Virus record (IMG/VR): IMGVR_UViG_3300009008_000147
Location: 1 to 33,475 of that record
Source: a virus
Strand: one strand, 5' to 3'
DNA length: 33,475 nucleotides
Of this stretch, positions 1 to 33,475 are shown in pieces. The position numbers and the translations under genes were made by a program. Under the pieces are notes generated by a model, which made no database searches, was not told the origin of the DNA, and was given only the letters and a program-made list of their open reading frames with translations. The first letter of the stretch is position 1; each line of letters opens with the position of its first letter.

Positions 1-119
1 CATTAAGCATATTATTTATGAAGTCAGCAATTCGGTTACAAAAAAGAAGTTGACCACTTCCCTAAAGGGAATGTATATAGAGACAATGGGAACCCGCTAT
101 GATGGGCCACCCACATAAA
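1..119. repeat. Left copy of 119-bp terminal overlap
   Basis: These 119 bases are identical to 33357-33475. An exact overlap at both ends of a contig is what a de Bruijn assembler leaves on a circular or circularly permuted molecule, so this is most likely an assembly overlap and not a biological repeat. The tail gene that ends at 33474 also ends here at 118. Confidence 0.95.
2..118 (+). CDS. C-terminal end of large tail protein (partial copy)
   Basis: These are the last 38 codons and the TAA stop of the large tail protein encoded at 31300-33474, seen a second time because of the 119-bp contig overlap. On the closed circle this is the same gene, followed 14 bases later by the gene at 133. 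It should not be counted as a separate gene or a pseudogene. Confidence 0.9.
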   Translation: MKHIIYEVSNSVTKKKLTTSLKGMYIETMGTRYDGPPT

Positions 120-480: not shown

Positions 481-1305
481 ATGTTGGGACTAGGGATCGG
501 ACTGAACCGGGGCGGTAATCGTAAATGGAACCCTACAATGCTCGGTGACTGTTTGGTATGGCTCGCTGCTGATTACGGTGTCACGAAAGATGGTAGTGAC
601 AATGTAGTCGAGTGGGAAAATCGGGGAAACAGTGGTGAGAATTTTCATCAGCTAACCGTTCCCGCAGACCGTCCGTTGTGGGAGGACAATGCTCAGAATG
701 GACTCCCCGGGATTAAGTTTGCTGCTGGCGAGTTCATGCGGCATGGCGAGAATGCTGGAGCTGGAGTCGGGTTCCCTAATGACGGGGGCGAGGCAACTAT
801 CCTTGCGGCGTTTATTCCACCGAAAGTAGTTGCCTCTGGAGCCGCTGGTATTTTCAGCAAGTGGCGAGTTGATAGTGCTTATCGTTCGGTTACATTAAAT
901 CTCTATAATACCTCAACGGCGGATTTCAGTGTCCGGGGAATGTTGTCTGACAATGGAACGAACTGGGTATTAGACGACAGCACAGACGAGTACGATGAGG
1001 ATTGCGGGGCCATGTGGGCTTTTATGCAAACCCGATGCAGCACACAGGAAATGCGTGCTGGTGTTGATGATGCCGAGGGCTACACGAGAAGTTCATATTA
1101 TGATACCGTTAATTATGATGCAGCTATCCCGGCATATCTGGGGGCTTATTATATGAGCAACAACACAACCCCGGTCGATCACATGGACAAGACTTTGCTG
1201 GAAGTGGTTTACATTAACAAGCGTCTGGAATGGGCCGACATTGCCAAGTTTGGCGCTTATGTGGAGGGGAAATGGGGCATTACTCAACCTGTAGCCGCAA
1301 AATAA
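481..1305 (+). CDS. LamG/concanavalin A-like lectin-fold tail protein, candidate receptor binder
   Basis: A 274-residue protein starting 9 bases after the preceding stop, with a GGGGG-type SD. Its pattern matches phage and bacterial ConA/LamG-like modules: an opening LVWLAADYGVT near residues 28-38, a VVEWENRGNSG strand with expected Trp and Gly, RPLW, then NGLPGIKF, and a final strand plus helix ending at EWADIAKFGAYVEGKWGI. The closing phrase about which residues pack a short helix is typical of this family. Known LamG-like domains bind carbohydrate or act as virion appendages. Sitting just after the tail hub, it is the best visible receptor-binding candidate. No long fibre gene is present, which is unusual for a phage this size. 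Confidence 0.7.
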   Translation: MLGLGIGLNRGGNRKWNPTMLGDCLVWLAADYGVTKDGSDNVVEWENRGNSGENFHQLTVPADRPLWEDNAQNGLPGIKFAAGEFMRHGENAGAGVGFPNDGGEATILAAFIPPKVVASGAAGIFSKWRVDSAYRSVTLNLYNTSTADFSVRGMLSDNGTNWVLDDSTDEYDEDCGAMWAFMQTRCSTQEMRAGVDDAEGYTRSSYYDTVNYDAAIPAYLGAYYMSNNTTPVDHMDKTLLEVVYINKRLEWADIAKFGAYVEGKWGITQPVAAK

Positions 1306-1563: not shown

Positions 1564-1938
1564 ATGGCTCCAGCAATCGCAAGCAGGGAAGAGGACAACG
1601 GTAGCCAGAAGCTCGTCCACCGGAAAGAGCAGCAGCAGAAAGTTGTTATCAAATCCAAGTGGACTATTGGTAAAATAGCGAGCGTGCTAACACTGGCGGG
1701 AGCTTTACTGTTGAATGTGATACTCGCTACTGTTGCATGGACACGGGTAGCCGAAACCGGGGAAACCAATGCAGGTCACATTCAGGAGCATTCTGAAATG
1801 TTGGGGGCTTTTACTATTTATCTCGGTGCGCCTGCTGTCGGTGCAACCTTGAAGGACGATTACATGCAGCGGGAGGTACTGGAACCGAGATTGGATAGAA
1901 TCCTCAGAATACTTGACCCGGAAGGGGTACACCCATGA
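1564..1938 (+). CDS. Single-TM membrane protein, candidate holin or inner spanin
   Basis: A 124-residue protein. ATG 1564 was chosen because AGGAG lies at 1553-1557; an earlier in-frame ATG (1465) has no SD and runs through the preceding gene. Residues 1-34 are basic and polar. Residues 35-59 form one hydrophobic segment (WTIGKIASVLTLAGALLL and on). The remaining 65 residues are amphipathic, with ERL/DRIL-type helix at the end. The N-in, C-out layout and its place just before a secreted protease and an M15 peptidase suggest a lysis role, either holin or inner-spanin-like. The family is not recognised, so the role is inference from topology and context. Confidence 0.55.
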   Translation: MAPAIASREEDNGSQKLVHRKEQQQKVVIKSKWTIGKIASVLTLAGALLLNVILATVAWTRVAETGETNAGHIQEHSEMLGAFTIYLGAPAVGATLKDDYMQREVLEPRLDRILRILDPEGVHP

Positions 1939-2972
1939 AGCTGCTGATTGTATTATTTTCAATACTCGTTGTGTGGGGATCCAGTACAGCGACCAATAGT
2001 TTACTCTTTACAGATTCGGCTCCCACTGTGGAGCCGTTACTTACTGTAGAGTGGGGACAGAAAGCTCCGTACAACCAGTACTGTCCGGCTGATAGTGGTG
2101 GCTACGATGGTCATGTACCGACTGGCTGTGTTCCGGTTGCTGTCGCTATGGTCATGCACTACTACCATTCACCAAAGATCGGTTACGGTGTCGCAACCAA
2201 CCAGACCGCATACTACGGTGAGCTTGTTGCCGAGATTGGCAAAGCCCCTATTGATTGGGGTTCGAATGATGGTGTAGCGAGGGTAATTAACCATATCGGA
2301 ATTAGTATAGGTGCTAACTACGGTCAGCAGGGTTGGGGCGATCAGGCTGTTAAGAACCCCCGGAACACTGGAACGAATATCGGCTCGCTCCGCACCAATA
2401 TGTACACCTACTGGAATTACCCGGTCAGTGTTGGAACTATCAACCGGAAAGCGTATGACGATTACGAGTGGCACAAACTACTTCAGCACGAGCTTCTGTC
2501 CGGTCGTCCTGTAATCTACGGTGGTAGCGGTCACGCTTTCGTTATTGACGGTTACGATCAGGGAACAGGGTCAGCTCCAAAGTATCACTGTAATTGGGGA
2601 GCGGCTGGCCGTTGGAACGGTTGGTACAGGCTGGATGACCTGACCCCGGGAAGTTTCGACTTCACTGAAGGTCAGCACATGGTAGAGAATTTCTACCCCC
2701 GACCTGTATACTTACTGTACCCGCAGGATGGTAATGAGTGGGTTCCGCATGAACGGTCACTGTTCCTCTGGAGACTACTCGGTGATAGCTGCACATTTCT
2801 GGTCAACAATTACCCGTCCTTCAGGCAACCGATAATTCGTGAGCGGGGGATGACCGAACCTATATACTTTACTACCCTGCTCGAGCCGGACAGCATCTAC
2901 TATTGGGCTGTATATACTTTCGGTGGAGATGAAGGTTGGTCACGCATTCACAAATTCAAAACCCGGGAGTAG
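1935..2972 (+). CDS. Secreted C10 (streptopain-like) cysteine protease with C-terminal FN3-like domain
   Basis: A 345-residue protein coupled by an ATGA overlap to the gene before it. Residues 1-19 look like a Sec signal peptide (K2, then hydrophobic, cleavage near SSTA). The C10 core starts at once: WGQKAPYNQYCP (40-51), the nucleophile in PTGCVPVAVAMVMHYY (Cys65), GRPVIYGGSGHAFVIDGYD with His200, and YHCNWGAAGRWNGWYRL. These are hallmarks of the streptopain/SpeB family. Residues 258-345 resemble an FN3 module (LLYPQDGNEW, then YYWAVYTFGGDEGWSRIHKFKT). SpeB-type enzymes carry a long inhibitory propeptide, and none is present here. Neighbours suggest a function in lysis or envelope penetration, but cleaving host surface proteins is equally possible. 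Confidence 0.8.
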   Translation: MKLLIVLFSILVVWGSSTATNSLLFTDSAPTVEPLLTVEWGQKAPYNQYCPADSGGYDGHVPTGCVPVAVAMVMHYYHSPKIGYGVATNQTAYYGELVAEIGKAPIDWGSNDGVARVINHIGISIGANYGQQGWGDQAVKNPRNTGTNIGSLRTNMYTYWNYPVSVGTINRKAYDDYEWHKLLQHELLSGRPVIYGGSGHAFVIDGYDQGTGSAPKYHCNWGAAGRWNGWYRLDDLTPGSFDFTEGQHMVENFYPRPVYLLYPQDGNEWVPHERSLFLWRLLGDSCTFLVNNYPSFRQPIIRERGMTEPIYFTTLLEPDSIYYWAVYTFGGDEGWSRIHKFKTRE

Positions 2973-3830: not shown

Positions 3831-4208
3831 GTGCAATCGCAGTATTTTGAATTATCCGAATTTGACTGCCCGTGCGGATGCGGGGCCAACCATACAAAAC
3901 CCGAACACCTTAGACGCCTGACAATCGCTCGCAGAATTGCGGGCGTTCCTTTTGTTGTCAACTGCGGGACCCGGTGTAAACGGTTTAATACTTCTCTTCC
4001 TGGAGCTGGTAATGACAGTGAACACCTGACCGGGGAAGGTTCAGACATTAAGACTGCCGACAGCCCTACCCGCTACGCAGTCCTGCGGGGCCTGATCGGG
4101 GCCGGGTTCACTCGAATAGAATTTGGCCCGAACTATATCCATGCGGGCTCCGGGCCAACGAAACCACAGGGCGTTGCATGGTACAGCCCGTTACTCACGA
4201 AGGAATGA
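3831..4208 (+). CDS. M15-family zinc peptidase, endolysin
   Basis: A 125-residue protein starting at GTG 3831, with GGAGG 5 bases upstream. The expected zinc ligands of the compact phage M15 peptidases are visible: His65 in SEHLTGEGSDIK, Asp72 in the same motif, and His104 in NYIHAG. The N-terminal segment (YFELSEFDCPCGCGAN) is typical of this group. Such enzymes cleave peptide bonds in the peptidoglycan stem (L-Ala-D-Glu or D-Ala-D-Ala type) and serve as endolysins. There is no signal peptide, so release through a holin is expected. This is the clearest lysis enzyme in the genome. Confidence 0.88.
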   Translation: MQSQYFELSEFDCPCGCGANHTKPEHLRRLTIARRIAGVPFVVNCGTRCKRFNTSLPGAGNDSEHLTGEGSDIKTADSPTRYAVLRGLIGAGFTRIEFGPNYIHAGSGPTKPQGVAWYSPLLTKE

Positions 4209-4215
4209 TACCACT

Positions 4216-4285
4216 CCCGCCCTGTTGCTTCTTGGTGTCCTTCGGGCGACAGGCGGCCTCCAGCTCGGGGGCTGTCAGGGGCGGG
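4216..4285 (+). ncRNA. Foldable three-way-junction leader before the ParB-like gene
   Basis: The 98-base gap before the ParB-like gene can fold into a compact structure. P1 pairs CCCGCCCTG (4216-4224) with CAGGGGCGGG (4276-4285) with one bulge. P2 is TGTC/GACA (4236-4239 with 4248-4251) closed by a C(UUCG)G tetraloop and a two-base bulge. P3 pairs GCCTCC (4256-4261) with GGGGGC (4267-4272). The SD AAGGAG follows at 4295-4300. It could be an attenuator, a processing site or a regulatory leader of the modification cassette. No known RNA family is recognised. Confidence 0.4.
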
Positions 4286-4306
4286 ATTCTTAACAAGGAG
4301 AACAAA

Positions 4307-4906
4307 GTGGATAATGAACTGAATGTCGTCATGGTTCCTATCAAGGATTTGATAGCTGCTGAGTACAACCCCCGGAAGATGACAGAGAACCAGAGGAAGG
4401 CCCTGACCGACAGTATTAAACGCTTCGGTCTGATCGATCCCTGCATAGTGAACTGCCACGAGGACAGGAAGAACATTGTGATCGGTGGTCACCAGAGGCT
4501 TGTGATTGCAGCAGAACTGGAAATTGCAGAGGCCCCCTGTGTCATGGTGGAGCTGGACAGGGAGCGGGAACGGGAACTGAATATCCGGTTGAACCAGAAT
4601 ACAGGTGATTGGGATTGGGAAGCACTGGGTAAATACTTCGAGAGCGAAGAGCTGGTCGATTGGGGCTTCGACCAGAAGGAGCTGGAAGCGGAGCTGCTGG
4701 CTGCTGACCCGGGCAATATGCCTGACGATCTTGCTGATGTCGATTTACAGGGAGATACAGCGGGTACAAATGACTGGGTGGTTGTCCGGTTTGAACAGGA
4801 GGCCGACTACGAACACTTCTGTGACAGGCTGGAAATGAAACCCGGGGCCCGGACAGTGGACTACGCTGACCTGAAAAAAATTATGGTGAAAGATGGCGCA
4901 CCCTGA
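4307..4906 (+). CDS. ParB-like N-terminal (Srx/ParB fold) domain protein of the putative DNA-modification cassette
   Basis: A 199-residue protein. GTG 4307 is chosen because AAGGAG sits 6 bases upstream; the frame is open further up, but only across the structured leader. Residues 9-100 show the ParB/Srx pattern: VPIKDLIAAEYNPRKM, then SIKRFGLIDPCIV, then the nucleotide-binding loop IGGHQRLVIA (GGHQR at 60-64). In phages such domains often accompany DNA-modifying enzymes and may bind CTP/ATP or have nuclease activity. The C-terminal 65 residues are an acidic linker and a short alpha/beta region (WVVVRFEQEADYEHFCDRL). It overlaps the glycosyltransferase start by 14 bases, so the two are translationally coupled. 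There is no partner ParA and no partition signature. Confidence 0.82.
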   Translation: MDNELNVVMVPIKDLIAAEYNPRKMTENQRKALTDSIKRFGLIDPCIVNCHEDRKNIVIGGHQRLVIAAELEIAEAPCVMVELDRERERELNIRLNQNTGDWDWEALGKYFESEELVDWGFDQKELEAELLAADPGNMPDDLADVDLQGDTAGTNDWVVVRFEQEADYEHFCDRLEMKPGARTVDYADLKKIMVKDGAP

Positions 4907-5633
4907 ATACAGTATAGCTATACCGACCCTGAAGCGGTACGGTCAACTATCAACGGTTAAGTTCCTGAAGGGGCTACAGGAAGCCACTACCATCTTTGTG
5001 CATAGCAAGCAGGAGCTGGAACTGTACCGATCCTTTGATCCTGACCTGAACTACCATAACGCTGACACCCCTATCGGAATGCAGAATATCCGCAACTACA
5101 TGCTGGACTTTTACCCCCGGGGCCAGTGGGTGATATTCTTCGATGATGATGTGAAGGGGCTGCTGACCCTCTCCCCGGACGGTAAGAAGCTGGTCAGGAT
5201 AAGTGAAACTCTTGTGAAGGGCTTCATTGAAAAAGCTATCGAGTTCTGTGAAAAGGTAGGTGCGAGTATGTGGGGGGTGTACCCCATCCGCAATTCCTTC
5301 TTCATGTCACGCTCGGTCAGTCCGAATAACTTCATCATCGGCCAGCTCATGGGAATTAAGATCAGCGAGATTCGCTGTGACCCGGAGCTGTTCCTGAAGA
5401 GCGACTACGACCTGACCCTGAAACATATCATGCGTGACGGTAAAGCGGCCCGGTTCAATCATATCTGTTTGGATGCGAAACAGAGAACCAACCCGGGCGG
5501 TTGCGTATCGTACCGGGATGATGATAAAATGGAGAAGGCCACAACCCGGCTACTGGAGCTGCACGGCAACGCTGTACGGTTGAACCCGAAACGGAAGAAC
5601 GAAGTGTTAATGAATTTGAAGGTAAAGAAATGA
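4893..5633 (+). CDS. GT-A glycosyltransferase, TET-associated (TAGT)-like, putative DNA base glycosyltransferase
   Basis: A 246-residue protein whose ATG lies inside the end of the ParB-like gene. The first strand YSIAIPTLKR (6-15) fits the opening of GT-A nucleotide-sugar enzymes. FFDDDV (Asp84-86) is the metal-binding DxD equivalent. LKSDYDLTLKHIMRDGKAARF (from 169) matches the later acidic motif with Asp171 and Asp173, followed by NPGG. This arrangement resembles the phage TET-associated glycosyltransferase group, related to the base J glucosyltransferase, which transfers sugar to hydroxymethylated pyrimidines in DNA. No TET/JBP gene is present, so the hydroxyl acceptor would have to come from elsewhere; the coupled radical SAM gene is the obvious candidate. 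Family assignment is moderately confident, and DNA as substrate is inference. Confidence 0.7.
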   Translation: MAHPEYSIAIPTLKRYGQLSTVKFLKGLQEATTIFVHSKQELELYRSFDPDLNYHNADTPIGMQNIRNYMLDFYPRGQWVIFFDDDVKGLLTLSPDGKKLVRISETLVKGFIEKAIEFCEKVGASMWGVYPIRNSFFMSRSVSPNNFIIGQLMGIKISEIRCDPELFLKSDYDLTLKHIMRDGKAARFNHICLDAKQRTNPGGCVSYRDDDKMEKATTRLLELHGNAVRLNPKRKNEVLMNLKVKK

Positions 5634-6895
5634 AGTACTATATGTCCCCCCGGTGGTCTGGTGAAATTCTGGACTGCGCTATGCCGATGACTTTTGACAC
5701 TTACAGTCGATGCTCCTACAACTGTCGCTACTGCTTCGGTATCTTCCAGAAGGCCTCCCGGAAGTCTTCCGGGCGTGGCACATTCAAGGAACCGCTGACC
5801 TGTCAGCCTGTCCAGCATGTGAATGTAGACGCAATTCAAAAGCTGTTCACACTGCAAACCAACTCGCAATTCAACGGGTATATCCGGGCCGGGCTGACTA
5901 TGCAGTGGGGCGGGCTGACTGACCCGTTCTGTAACTTCGAGAAGAAGCACGGGATCACACTGAAACTGATGGAGTTCTTCAAGAGCATCAACTACCCCCT
6001 CCGATTCAGCACTAAAGCCACATGGTGGCTGGACGACCCCCGGTATACTGACCTGATCAGGGGCCAGAAGAACTGGGTGTTCATGTTTTCGATAATTAAT
6101 TTGGACCCAAAAGTAGCGGCGAAAGTGGAGGCTGGAGTGCCGAGCCCGCAGGAGCGGCTGGAAGCTATAAGGAAAATAGCGGAGCTCGATTGCGCCGGGG
6201 CGGTTCTCCGGTTGCGCCCGTTTATAATCGGTATGAGTGACACCAACGGGGATCACATTAAATTGATTGAGCAGGCTGCCGGGGCCGGGGCCTCTGCCGT
6301 CAGCACGGAGTTCTTCTGTCTGGAACAGCGGAGTAATGAAACGGTTAAAAAAAGCTACCAGATAATGGCTGACGCTCTGGGTTTTGATATTGTGGGGATG
6401 TACAAGAAGCTGTCAAAGGGTGGTGGCTACCTGCGGTTGAACCGGAATGTGAAAGCCCCCTTCATAGCTGATATGAAAGCGGCCTGTGACCGGGTCGGTT
6501 TGAAATTTCATGTAAGTGATGCACACCATAAAGAACAGGGTTGCACGGGGGCCTGCTGTGGCCTCCCTCCAGACATGCCCTACAACAAGGGTCAGTTCAC
6601 AGAGGCCCTGATGATCGCAAAGGAAAACGGGGTTGTGTACTGGTCAGACATCGCCCCTGATGCGGAATTATTTAAGCACTTCCTCTGGCGAAATGCAACC
6701 GGGTTCAACACGAACAATCAGGTGAACCGGGTGAAGCGTTCAACCCAGACCATGTACGAGTATGTCAGAGCCGCCTGGAACACGCCAAACAGCCTACACA
6801 GCCCTTACAAGTACTTCGGTGGAGTTTTGCGCCCTGAAGGAATTGACGATGAGGGGAATGTTATATACAAATATGACCGGGATTTGGCACTCTAA
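5630..6895 (+). CDS. Radical SAM enzyme of the modification cassette
   Basis: A 421-residue protein coupled by an ATGA overlap to the glycosyltransferase. Residues 28-35 (CSYNCRYC) are the radical SAM CxxxCxxC motif that holds the 4Fe-4S cluster. A Gly-rich SAM-binding strand (MQWGGLTDPF, 91-100) follows, as in spore-photoproduct-lyase-like members. Residues 305-310 (CTGACC) supply three more cysteines, which could hold an auxiliary cluster or act in catalysis. Radical SAM enzymes generate a 5-deoxyadenosyl radical from SAM. The SPL-like group acts on thymine in DNA, so a role in activating a DNA base for glycosylation is attractive, but the substrate is not shown by sequence. About 165 bases with a possible promoter separate it from the next gene. 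Confidence 0.82.
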   Translation: MKYYMSPRWSGEILDCAMPMTFDTYSRCSYNCRYCFGIFQKASRKSSGRGTFKEPLTCQPVQHVNVDAIQKLFTLQTNSQFNGYIRAGLTMQWGGLTDPFCNFEKKHGITLKLMEFFKSINYPLRFSTKATWWLDDPRYTDLIRGQKNWVFMFSIINLDPKVAAKVEAGVPSPQERLEAIRKIAELDCAGAVLRLRPFIIGMSDTNGDHIKLIEQAAGAGASAVSTEFFCLEQRSNETVKKSYQIMADALGFDIVGMYKKLSKGGGYLRLNRNVKAPFIADMKAACDRVGLKFHVSDAHHKEQGCTGACCGLPPDMPYNKGQFTEALMIAKENGVVYWSDIAPDAELFKHFLWRNATGFNTNNQVNRVKRSTQTMYEYVRAAWNTPNSLHSPYKYFGGVLRPEGIDDEGNVIYKYDRDLAL

Positions 6896-7337: not shown

Positions 7338-8051
7338 ATGAAGTCGAAAAAAAGTGCTACCAAGAAGACCGCTGTCAAGCACACCAAACCCAACCTGAAG
7401 GACGCTAAGGCAGCAGTACAAGCAGCAGTTGACTATGTTGACAGTAGTAAGAAGAAACCCGTTACCAATTCAAAGGAGTCGAAAATGAAGAACCTGAAAG
7501 CCGGAACAGTCGTCACAGAAGCCTTTAATCAGGACAAGCTGGAAGTCGAAGTTGGCCCCGCTACTCTGCTCAGGAGAGGCGACAAAACACGGGATACCGA
7601 TAGCGGTGAAAACTGGGTAGTTCATTTTGAAGTGGATTTCCCTGAACTGGAAGTTGAGCGTCTGGTAGGAAAGCCCGGGGCCTTTGACTTTCTGGTCGAA
7701 GATCGCCAGAAGAGCCGCAGGGGCAAGGAGCGGAGCCCGGTCACTGTCACCGAGCAGCCTGACGGAAATATGTTGGTTTCCTGCAAAGCCCCGAACCGGG
7801 CTGCCAAGCGCAGGTTCCCGAAAGCCTTTAAGTATGAGCGGGTGGAAGGTGGCGTTCTGTGTCACATGACAAAGGCCTCCGCTGACAAGGCTACCCCGGT
7901 CAAGAAGGCCGCAAAAAAGGCCCCGGCCAAGAAGACCACCAAGAAGGCCGTCACCGCCCCGAAGAAAGGGAAAGTAACCAAGGCCCCGAAGGGTAAATCC
8001 AAGCCCGTCAAGGCCGCAAAAGCCGACAAAAAAGCGAAGGCTAAGAAATAA
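7338..8051 (+). CDS. Lys/Ala-rich histone H1-like DNA-binding protein with two start sites
   Basis: A 237-residue protein. Residues 1-50 form a basic leader (MKSKKSATKKTAVKHTK). Residues 51-175 are a folded core of unknown family, with LEVEVGPATLLRRGDK and WVVHFEVDFPELEVERLV. From about residue 180 the chain is a Lys/Ala/Pro tail with KKAAKKAPAKKTTKKA-type repeats like those of histone H1 and bacterial H1-like proteins. A second perfect SD, AAAGGAGTCGAAAATG, lies inside the gene and leads to in-frame ATG 7485 (codon 50), so a 188-residue form lacking the basic leader is likely made too. The tail suggests non-specific DNA binding, for example genome compaction or nucleoid targeting. The gene sits between 50-bp inverted repeats. 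Confidence 0.85.
   Translation: MKSKKSATKKTAVKHTKPNLKDAKAAVQAAVDYVDSSKKKPVTNSKESKMKNLKAGTVVTEAFNQDKLEVEVGPATLLRRGDKTRDTDSGENWVVHFEVDFPELEVERLVGKPGAFDFLVEDRQKSRRGKERSPVTVTEQPDGNMLVSCKAPNRAAKRRFPKAFKYERVEGGVLCHMTKASADKATPVKKAAKKAPAKKTTKKAVTAPKKGKVTKAPKGKSKPVKAAKADKKAKAKK
7472..7487 (+). promoter_or_regulatory. Internal SD and start (ATG 7485) within the Lys-rich gene
   Basis: The sequence AAAGGAGTCGAAAATG here is identical over 16 bases to the ones that start the genes at 7061, 7338 and 14015. It is in frame with the long gene, so two products sharing a C-terminus are expected. The alternative is that the upstream 49 codons are a later addition to a gene that originally began here. Confidence 0.6.
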
Positions 8052-30938: not shown

Positions 30939-31303
30939 TGGCGTGTCGTCTATATAGCTCAGTCGGGCCGACACAGGTTGATTTCAGTATCCACAAAGAA
31001 ATCGGCGGTGACCGGGATAACAACCAGATCAACTCCGAGTCGGAAGCTGGCGATATTGAAAGTTTGGAATTTGGTCATGCTTCTGAATGGATTATGATAA
31101 GGGGGATCAATATAACCGCTTCGTTACTGGCTGATGTGAAGAGCTTTCTGACCGATTTCAAAGGTAGTACCTTCTCGTACTACGAGATACAGGGTGTATC
31201 ATCCGCTGTGACTGTACGCTGGTTGGAGACGAAATTCCGTTGGATGAAACACCATCATGACAACTACACTTTCAGGTTAAAGTTGCGGGTTGAAAAAACA
31301 TGA
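30938..31303 (+). CDS. Distal tail-region protein
   Basis: A 121-residue protein with TAATG overlap to the tape measure. It is a beta-rich mix (CRLYSSVGPTQVDFSIHKEIGGDRDN, then FGHASEWIMIRGINITASLLADVKSFLTDFKGSTFSYYEIQGVSSAVTVRWLETKFRW), resembling the small distal tail proteins that follow the tape measure in siphoviruses. Position and shape suggest the tail tip, such as a Dit-like or adaptor protein. No clear domain match. Coupled by ATGA to the last gene. Confidence 0.6.
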   Translation: MACRLYSSVGPTQVDFSIHKEIGGDRDNNQINSESEAGDIESLEFGHASEWIMIRGINITASLLADVKSFLTDFKGSTFSYYEIQGVSSAVTVRWLETKFRWMKHHHDNYTFRLKLRVEKT

Positions 31304-33474
31304 GCAGGACGATACCCTCCAATATTACTACAGGGCTGGCAAACGGGGACGAGCCTGTTTTACTGGTCGATCTACTAACGAAGTCCGGCACTCACTACCG
31401 CTGGTCAACACTACCCACAAGTGACTTCACCTCATGGGCTGGCAATACTTATATCAGTAAGGTTGTGAAGTCATCTCCCATGAAAATAGTCAACGATATA
31501 ACTAAAGAGGCGGGCTGCGGGCGGTTGGGTAGCTTTACTTTTGAAGTACAGAATGCTAATTATAATTCCACTACCTCGCTCTGGGATTACATGAAGAGCG
31601 AAGAGGACTACCCCTCTGGTGCTATCGTTACTGCCTACCTGATCACTAATACTGGAACCGGGCTGGACGAAGATGACGCTTTAGAAGTATTCAAGGGGGC
31701 TGTCACAAAGCCAACCCAGAACCTGAAGACAGTTAAATTCATGTGTGCCGACATTTCTGACGATGCGCATTTGCCAATCCCGCAGACGGGCATTACTGAA
31801 GAGAATTACCCTAATGCTTATGACCACCCCGCAAAGAACATAGATAATGCATTCGTACCCATCTCACTTGGGGCTGCTGGTGACGGGTATTTCCTTGCAT
31901 TCATGACCGACTCTCGCCCCGGGACCGACAGGCTGTTCAGGATTGATACCGACAGATGCCTCGGCGGAGGGAGTGTCTACCTGTACGACAGGAACGGCTT
32001 CCGTGAGCTCGATCACACTTGGGGTAGCAACGAAGCAACCGGAGATATAGATTCTGACGCACTCTCTGAAACATTCCTAATTACAATCACACCGACAGAT
32101 GTAACGGTCGATGGAACCCTCTGGACGGAGAACTCTGGATCTGACGAAGAGGAAACTATTGACGGTTCGGAATCAACCTACTGTCAGGAAACTGTTGACT
32201 GGATTACGCTGGATGAAGCGTTCATTTACTGGACAGGGTTCGACGAGGACGAGTCGTGGTTCAAACTGGTAAAGTCGTTCCTGAAAGCCAAAATCATTTT
32301 GGCGTACAACAAGCACTACGGGCAGCAGCTTGAGTTCCTTGACGCTGACGGGGAGCCTATCTCCATCGACCTTATAGCTGACGGGGAAACCGACCTTACC
32401 TCTTCTGAAGAGGTTTTGCTTACGCTCGGGGGTGGCGAAACAGGTTCTCCGATTACACCGGAGTCGCTGTTCCAAAAGCTGACATTCCGGGCGGAAATGC
32501 CCGGTATTGGTATTAGTTTAGTGGTGAAATTCTACGAGCTGGTAGAGTTGTCGTTCCTGTACGAGATATTCTATGGCGAAACAGACTTCCTGTGTGATGC
32601 TGGCGGTAGGGAGTTCTATACAACATGGAACAGCCGCAAAACAGCTACCAACGGGATCGTATCATTTGCTGAAGCTGTGGAGGGCATCCTGCGCCACGAG
32701 TTAGGGCTGGCGACAGCCGACATTGACGATGCCACTTTTGACGCTGCCAACACTGCCCTGAACAGCTGGACGGGCAAGGCTTACAATGACTCAACCTTCA
32801 AGGTGTTTGGGCAGCAGCAGGCGCAGGAGAACAGTAGGGATGTGATCAAGAAACTGTGTGAGGAGTCCGGGCTGACCTACGGGGCAGACTATGCGGGTAG
32901 TCACACGCTCCACATGATCGAGAACGAATCCACAGCCGATTACACTATCACTGAAAGCGAAATTAAGAAGGGTTCGTTTAAGACTTGGGCTTCAGGCACA
33001 CGGGAAATTTATAACGACTTCGTTCTGAACTTCGACAAGAACCAATTAACGGGGGCTTACCAGCAGACAATCACAATAAGCAAGGATTCCGGGATCGCCA
33101 GCGGAAGTAACCGCTGGTACTTGCAGAAACGGTGTACGGACTCTTTTGATAGATACGGGATTATCCGGCAGAAAACTATTAACTGCGATTGGATAACCAG
33201 TGAGGGAACAGCGTGGAAGGTGATCGACTGGTACTGTTACTTTTACTGCTTCATCCGGGAGTTCTGCTCTTTTGATGCTACCCTGCTCGGGCTACTGAAA
33301 GCCGAGACTATGGATATAGTGAATATAAAACACACGCTGACCGAACTGACCACTGGCATTAAGCATATTATTTATGAAGTCAGCAATTCGGTTACAAAAA
33401 AGAAGTTGACCACTTCCCTAAAGGGAATGTATATAGAGACAATGGGAACCCGCTATGATGGGCCACCCACATAA
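31300..33474 (+). CDS. Large tail hub / baseplate protein
   Basis: A 724-residue protein, ending 1 base before the contig end and joined across the circle to position 118. The N-terminal portion (MSRTIPSNITTGLANGDEPVLLVDLLTKSGTHYRWSTL) has the beta-rich opening of hub proteins. Long central regions are acidic and rich in Thr/Ser/Asp, with repeats such as LDEDDALEVFKG. The C-terminal part (from about 560) has AYNDSTFKVFGQQQAQENSRDVIKKLCEESGLTYG and AYQQTITISKDSGI, suggesting a fibre-hub. It probably forms the tail tip. Which of the domains binds the host is unknown. Confidence 0.65.
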   Translation: MSRTIPSNITTGLANGDEPVLLVDLLTKSGTHYRWSTLPTSDFTSWAGNTYISKVVKSSPMKIVNDITKEAGCGRLGSFTFEVQNANYNSTTSLWDYMKSEEDYPSGAIVTAYLITNTGTGLDEDDALEVFKGAVTKPTQNLKTVKFMCADISDDAHLPIPQTGITEENYPNAYDHPAKNIDNAFVPISLGAAGDGYFLAFMTDSRPGTDRLFRIDTDRCLGGGSVYLYDRNGFRELDHTWGSNEATGDIDSDALSETFLITITPTDVTVDGTLWTENSGSDEEETIDGSESTYCQETVDWITLDEAFIYWTGFDEDESWFKLVKSFLKAKIILAYNKHYGQQLEFLDADGEPISIDLIADGETDLTSSEEVLLTLGGGETGSPITPESLFQKLTFRAEMPGIGISLVVKFYELVELSFLYEIFYGETDFLCDAGGREFYTTWNSRKTATNGIVSFAEAVEGILRHELGLATADIDDATFDAANTALNSWTGKAYNDSTFKVFGQQQAQENSRDVIKKLCEESGLTYGADYAGSHTLHMIENESTADYTITESEIKKGSFKTWASGTREIYNDFVLNFDKNQLTGAYQQTITISKDSGIASGSNRWYLQKRCTDSFDRYGIIRQKTINCDWITSEGTAWKVIDWYCYFYCFIREFCSFDATLLGLLKAETMDIVNIKHTLTELTTGIKHIIYEVSNSVTKKKLTTSLKGMYIETMGTRYDGPPT

Positions 33475-33475
33475 A
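33357..33475. repeat. Right copy of 119-bp terminal overlap
   Basis: Identical to 1-119. One copy should be removed when closing the circle (unique length 33,356 bp). The overlap falls in the last 40 codons of the tail hub gene, so no gene is disrupted. Confidence 0.95.

What the first reader, a model, noticed from the sequence alone, without database searches (positions are those of the whole stretch)
1935..2972. Secreted C10 protease without a propeptide, fused to FN3, in a phage lysis region
The protein has a signal peptide, the complete Cys65/His200 C10 core and an FN3-like C-terminal domain, but no SpeB-like inhibitory propeptide between signal and core. C10 proteases are best known as bacterial secreted enzymes, and one beside a membrane protein and an endolysin in a small phage is unusual. 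It could clear surface protein (S-layer, lipoproteins) at lysis, block superinfection, or be carried as a cargo gene affecting host ecology.
Basis: partly seen in the sequence, partly recalled or inferred. Interest (0 to 1): 0.65.

Follow-up and report, generated by a model that had tools for sequence, protein, structure and literature searches.

The report
Phage-borne secreted C10 cysteine protease
A small bacterial virus carries a gene for an exported protein-cutting enzyme of the streptopain/interpain family that lacks the usual built-in "safety catch" and sits among its tail and lysis genes; a close cousin occurs in an unrelated large virus, so the enzyme is a shared phage tool, though a phage-borne enzyme of this family had been reported before.

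Summary
Window 1935-2972 encodes a 345-aa family C10 peptidase: Pfam E=1.4e-36, a confident core model whose best structural matches are interpain A and SpeB, and conserved Q42, C65, H200 and N220. It has a Sec-type signal peptide and only about 10-15 residues between the predicted cleavage site and the core, so no I69/SpeB-type propeptide. A single FN3-family domain follows. The window is a complete phage genome (119-bp identical ends). The C10 start overlaps the stop of a one-TM ORF (ATGA) in the tail-to-lysis gene block, upstream of an M15 endolysin; no integrase was found.

The nearest relative (59% identity, same layout) lies near tail-fibre, amidase and portal-like genes of a 189-kb myovirus-like phage that otherwise shares essentially nothing with this one. 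Other IMG/VR phages carry C10s of at least two further lineages. Cys/His is conserved in all.

"C10 in a phage" is not new: bfp3 in B. fragilis prophage Bfgi2 was published in 2010. Propeptide-free secreted C10s also occur in bacteria (L051). The propeptide-free C10+FN3 subfamily shared by unrelated phages looks new. Most likely it is a late, exported, constitutively active protease acting on envelope or surface proteins around lysis; that role is inferred, not shown.

The parts
1935..2972 (+). C10 cysteine peptidase gene, 345 aa (signal peptide + C10 core + FN3-like domain)
   Evidence: PF01640 E=1.4e-36; interpain A/SpeB by sequence and by fold
1935..1994 (+). predicted Sec (SPI-type) signal peptide, residues 1 to about 20
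   Evidence: hydrophobic core LLIVLFSILVVW, KD 3.16 over 12 residues; cleavage GSSTA|TN inferred
2022..2705 (+). C10 catalytic core, residues 30-257; Q42, C65, H200, N220, W221
   Evidence: AlphaFold2 model confident over most of the core; Foldseek best hit 3bba interpain A E=1e-13; residue table
2706..2969 (+). FN3-superfamily domain, residues 258-345
   Evidence: alignment A6 with bacterial tandem FN3 repeats; fn3 matched by 9 of 12 members; PDB FN3 hits
1564..1938 (+). 124-aa one-TM protein, candidate holin or inner-membrane spanin-like protein; overlaps the C10 start by 4 nt (ATGA)
   Evidence: KD 2.17 over 19 aa at residue 38; overlap; no confident family match
3831..4208 (+). M15-type endolysin
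   Evidence: PF08291 E=5e-8; phrog_894 endolysin E=2e-13
481..1305 (+). 274-aa putative virion structural protein upstream in the same block
   Evidence: phrog_10356 virion structural protein E=2e-7
31300..33474 (+). 724-aa tail-tip protein (weak J match); joins the left end of the window through the terminal repeat
   Evidence: phrog_31 central tail fiber J E=0.001; 119-bp terminal repeat

Best explanation
The gene encodes a probably functional family C10 (papain-fold) cysteine peptidase of a small phage. Shown by sequence: C10 membership, catalytic residues, N-terminal hydrophobic signal, no room for a propeptide, FN3 domain, ATGA overlap with a one-TM ORF, position between tail and endolysin genes. 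Inferred: it is made late, exported through Sec of a diderm host, folds without a prodomain, and is active as soon as it is folded. Export, rather than a zymogen, keeps the protease away from the cytoplasm. The FN3 module acts as a spacer or binding module towards envelope or surface material. In the envelope, and after burst in the medium, it cleaves envelope or surface proteins around lysis, which would help egress or strip receptors so that progeny do not re-adsorb to debris.
For: C10 by profile and fold. Cys/His/Gln conserved in all phage and bacterial relatives compared. Signal peptide. No I69 match, whereas relatives do match it. 4-nt overlap with the TM ORF, endolysin downstream, complete genome by a 119-bp repeat. 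No integrase among ORFs over 250 aa. Same architecture at 59% identity in the 189-kb phage G003, close to tail-fibre, amidase and portal-like genes, although the phages otherwise share only one weak match. Between the two genes pN 0.30 against pS 0.80 (synonymous sites saturated) over the whole protein, with the FN3 domain as constrained as the core, which fits purifying selection on the full-length protein.
Against: Transcription timing, export, activity and target are untested. The TM neighbour has no family match, so 'lysis cassette' rests on the endolysin and gene order. The host is unknown. The partner L056 has Val in place of the active-site Asn220, which could reduce its activity. No closely related phage covering this region was found, so conservation of the gene within this phage lineage could not be tested. 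A few small ORFs were not scanned and could include a repressor.
Confidence: 0.5

Rival explanations
1. Receptor clearance or superinfection exclusion: the exported protease removes outer-membrane or surface proteins of the infected cell during infection, not mainly at lysis.
For: Signal peptide and FN3 module point to an envelope or surface target. Recurrent placement of phage C10 genes beside tail or tail-fibre genes in several phages.
Against: Gene position in the late block (tail to endolysin) suggests late expression; superinfection genes are usually early or lysogenic (general knowledge). No match in the PADLOC library, which covers bacterial defence and is not built for exclusion proteins.
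Confidence: 0.2
2. Cargo (moron) that benefits the host or alters host ecology, as proposed for bfp3 on the Bacteroides prophage Bfgi2.
For: Published precedent: bfp3 C10 gene at one end of an excisable prophage (PMC2873492). C10s are known secreted enzymes of Bacteroidota.
Against: The genome is complete and no integrase is found among its large ORFs. The gene is inside the tail-lysis block with an ATGA overlap rather than at an attachment end. It is compositionally close to its genome (GC 50.4 against 52.2%).
Confidence: 0.15
3. Virion-associated (tail) protease that digests surface protein during entry.
For: A separate clade of gut-phage C10s lacks signal peptides and sits directly after 950-1200-aa tail-like proteins in five contigs, so other phage C10s may be virion parts. 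In the window the gene lies in the same block as a putative structural protein.
Against: The window protein has a strong signal peptide, which is unexpected for a tail part assembled in the cytoplasm; it belongs to a different C10 lineage.
Confidence: 0.1
4. Decayed or inactive remnant captured from a bacterium, or assembly chimera.
For: L056 has lost Asn220.
Against: Intact ORF, all catalytic residues kept in the window, constraint between the two phage copies, gene overlap, identical ends closing the genome, phage genes on both sides.
Confidence: 0.05

Closest known systems
Interpain A (Prevotella intermedia) and streptopain/SpeB, peptidase family C10
   Same: Catalytic core by sequence and fold; Cys/His with Gln and Asn-Trp; exported
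   Different: No propeptide in the window; FN3 domain at the C-terminus; phage-encoded; about 25-30% identity
Bfp3 of Bacteroides fragilis 638R on prophage Bfgi2 (PMC2873492)
   Same: C10 protease gene carried by a tailed-phage genome
   Different: 431-aa protein encoded at the end of a temperate prophage (ORF 34), away from the lysis genes (ORFs 4-5); discussed as a transmissible virulence-type gene; here 345 aa, no propeptide, inside the tail-lysis block, no integrase
C10 of 189-kb phage IMGVR_UViG_3300007511_000001 (L056)
   Same: 59% identity over nearly full length, signal peptide, no propeptide, FN3 domain, late region near an amidase
   Different: Large myovirus-like phage with 39% GC and tRNAs; Asn220 replaced by Val
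Muribaculaceae C10 (L051)
   Same: Signal peptide followed directly by the core, no propeptide
   Different: Bacterial, longer unrelated C-terminal region, about 29% identity; sister position in the tree only 93/88 with long branches

Membership tests
Peptidase family C10 (PF01640) | Full-length C10 domain above the curated cut-off | tested here: met
   127 bits against 26, profile 1-194/194
Peptidase family C10 (PF01640) | Catalytic Cys and His, with Gln and Asn/Trp | tested here: met
   Q42, C65, H200, N220, W221
Peptidase family C10 (PF01640) | C10 fold | tested here: met
   Foldseek interpain A E=1e-13, TMt 0.74
Peptidase family C10 (PF01640) | Proteolytic activity | not testable with these tools
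   needs an assay
Zymogen-type C10 (SpeB, interpain A, Bfp) | Inhibitory N-terminal propeptide (I69/Spi-like) | tested here: not met
   no I69 match; only about 10-15 residues between signal and core; relatives L058, L065, L069 do match I69
FN3 superfamily (C-terminal domain) | Profile or structural match to FN3 | tested here: met
   by relatives: fn3 in 9 of 12, PDB FN3 hits with the profile; the model of this region is low confidence
Phage lysis protein | Required for or contributing to lysis | not testable with these tools
   only gene order and overlap
Lysogenic-conversion cargo (as bfp3) | Carried by a temperate phage with integrase | tested here: not met
   complete genome, no integrase among ORFs over 250 aa; plasmid-like lysogeny not excluded

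The most novel reading that the evidence does not exclude
A propeptide-free, Sec-exported C10+FN3 protease is a dedicated phage lysis/egress effector, acting on envelope or surface proteins beside the endolysin, and is exchanged between unrelated small and large phages of one habitat.
Probability: 0.3. Interest if true: 0.65.

Novelty: new variant of a known kind. Interest (0 to 1): 0.42.

Why it matters
Phage lysis is described as holin, endolysin and spanin or disruptin; a secreted general protease as a lysis or egress component would add an enzyme class. The wider survey also suggests that C10 proteases entered phages more than once (about three lineages in the tree), with two designs: exported (window, L056) and signal-less beside tail genes (gut phages). 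No PHROG model matched the window protein, so such phage proteases are easily missed in annotation.

Tried and rejected
INPHARED hits MT836904 and MT836089: rejected as phage, since the flanks are SusC/SusD-type, RecB-like and other Bacteroidales chromosomal genes. Close-relative scan of IMG/VR with the single protein found nothing; alignment scans were needed. Sibling phages covering the lysis region: scans with the tail protein and with the 195-aa ORF gave only a partial contig in which no C10 was found. L002 is the same virus (99.995% identity over 19 kb) but does not reach the gene. Dataset numbers in the literature: no hits. A separate inhibitor beside the gene (Spi or staphostatin type): no match among neighbours to I69 or any other family. 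A structural non-coding feature in the 173-nt gap after the gene: fold z only -1.2. A defence-library match: none. The C-terminal part of the AlphaFold model is too poor to use.

Full report
What is there. ORF 1935-2972 (+) encodes 345 aa. Pfam Peptidase_C10 matches end to end (E=1.4e-36); interpain A and streptopain are the closest solved structures by sequence and by fold (Foldseek E about 1e-13). The AlphaFold2 model is good in the core only. Gln42, Cys65, His200 and Asp205 are invariant across 23 phage and bacterial C10s; Asn220 is kept in 22 and is Val in L056. The N-terminus is a strong signal-peptide-like stretch. Residue 29 of the window protein aligns with residue 10 of mature interpain A but with residue 83 of the prointerpain construct, and the Pfam propeptide model I69 does not match, whereas it matches C10s of phages L058, L065 and, more weakly, L069. 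So the propeptide is truly missing. The last 88 residues are an FN3-superfamily domain: alone the match is weak, but aligned with bacterial tandem repeats the family is clear.

Setting. The window is an IMG/VR virus record. Its first and last 119 bases are identical, so I read it as a complete genome of about 33.36 kb; the repeat may be an assembler overlap of a circular map, which would mean the same thing. A second assembly of the same virus exists (L002, 99.995% over 19 kb). It carries a terminase, a major capsid protein (phrog_212/GP7), a tape measure protein, an ERF recombinase and replication initiation genes. No integrase was found among ORFs over 250 aa. Joining the ends gives the order tail tip (31300-33474), 112 aa, 274-aa structural protein, about 92-aa ORF, 124-aa one-TM protein, C10, 195 aa, M15 endolysin. 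The C10 ATG overlaps the stop of the TM ORF (ATGA).

Relatives. Scans of IMG/VR with alignments found about a dozen C10-bearing viral contigs. The nearest, L056 (identical over 21 kb in two contigs, L055/L056), is 59% identical with the same signal-core-FN3 layout. It lies in a 189-kb myovirus-like genome (sheath-like protein by my reading of the sequence, 17 tRNAs plus a tmRNA, GC 39%) after tail-fibre, Amidase_2 and portal-like genes. The window shares only the C10 gene and one weak 74-aa match with that genome. The 189-kb contig and L002 come from the same dataset number (3300007511), so both phages occur in one habitat. Between the two genes non-synonymous change is much lower than synonymous (pN 0.30, pS 0.80, saturated), equally in the core and in FN3. 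Each gene's composition is near that of its own genome (GC 50.4 against 52.2%, and 41.9 against 39.0%), although the L056 gene has a somewhat higher GC3 (0.39) than its neighbours (0.26-0.33). This suggests fairly long residence in phages.

Tree (23 rows, many open forks). Window+L056 is firm (100/99). A gut-phage clade of eight is supported (95/89). L058, from a phage distantly related to the 189-kb one, groups with a bacterial C10 (86/96) and keeps a lipoprotein-like signal and an I69 propeptide. Three label changes are the fewest needed, though the tool notes that one origin is not strictly ruled out by starred branches. Bacterial C10s mostly have about 110-140 residues between signal and core; L051 (Muribaculaceae) does not.

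Function. Shown: family, intact active site, signal-like N-terminus, no propeptide, FN3, gene context. Inferred: late expression, Sec export, activity without maturation, action on envelope or surface proteins around lysis. I put about 0.5 on this. Rivals are receptor clearance, host-benefit cargo, a virion protease and decay. The signal peptide speaks against a virion part; the missing integrase and the position inside the late block speak against cargo. The Shine-Dalgarno-like fraction (0.61 in the window, 0.55 in the 189-kb phage, against 0-0.38 in the other phage loci) hints that these two hosts may not be Bacteroidota, but no host was identified.

Novelty. A C10 gene on a phage was published for bfp3 in prophage Bfgi2 (PMC2873492). 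Among 50,697 INPHARED records I found no convincing C10 phage (a 34-kb unverified record, MT835698, gave weak hits that I did not follow up). No PHROG model matched the window protein. What seems new is the propeptide-free C10+FN3 subfamily shared by unrelated phages and placed in the tail-lysis block, hence "new variant of a known kind".

Noticed in passing
L059, L061, L069, L071, L074 (C10 ORFs): A supported clade of gut-phage C10 proteases without signal peptide, most ending in a dockerin-like domain (checked by Pfam in L059, L060, L061, L065, L069), starts directly after a 950-1200-aa tail-like protein in five contigs; these may be virion-associated proteases.
   Followed up: partly
L065 5958-8351, L066, L082 6504-8909: Large gut phages encode about 800-aa C10 proteins (I69 found in L065) with two repeats resembling FISUMP (my reading), a C10 core and a dockerin, a few genes from terminase-like ORFs (my reading).
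   Followed up: partly
window 4178-6895: ParB-like protein, TET-associated glycosyltransferase (PF20691, E=5e-11) and a radical-SAM-like protein in a row: resembles a DNA base hypermodification cassette.
   Followed up: no
window 7338-8051: 237-aa protein with a very Lys/Ala-rich, histone H1-like C-terminal tail; no PHROG match.
   Followed up: no
window 1-119 and 33357-33475: 119-bp identical ends: the record is probably a complete genome.
   Followed up: yes
L049 (MT836904), L050 (MT836089): Records filed as 'Bacteriophage sp.' are Bacteroidales chromosomal fragments by their genes.
   Followed up: yes
L056 about 10600 (C10 gene): The otherwise close phage C10 in L056 has Val in place of the active-site Asn (HVVWG instead of HCNWG), unique among 23 compared.
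   Followed up: partly
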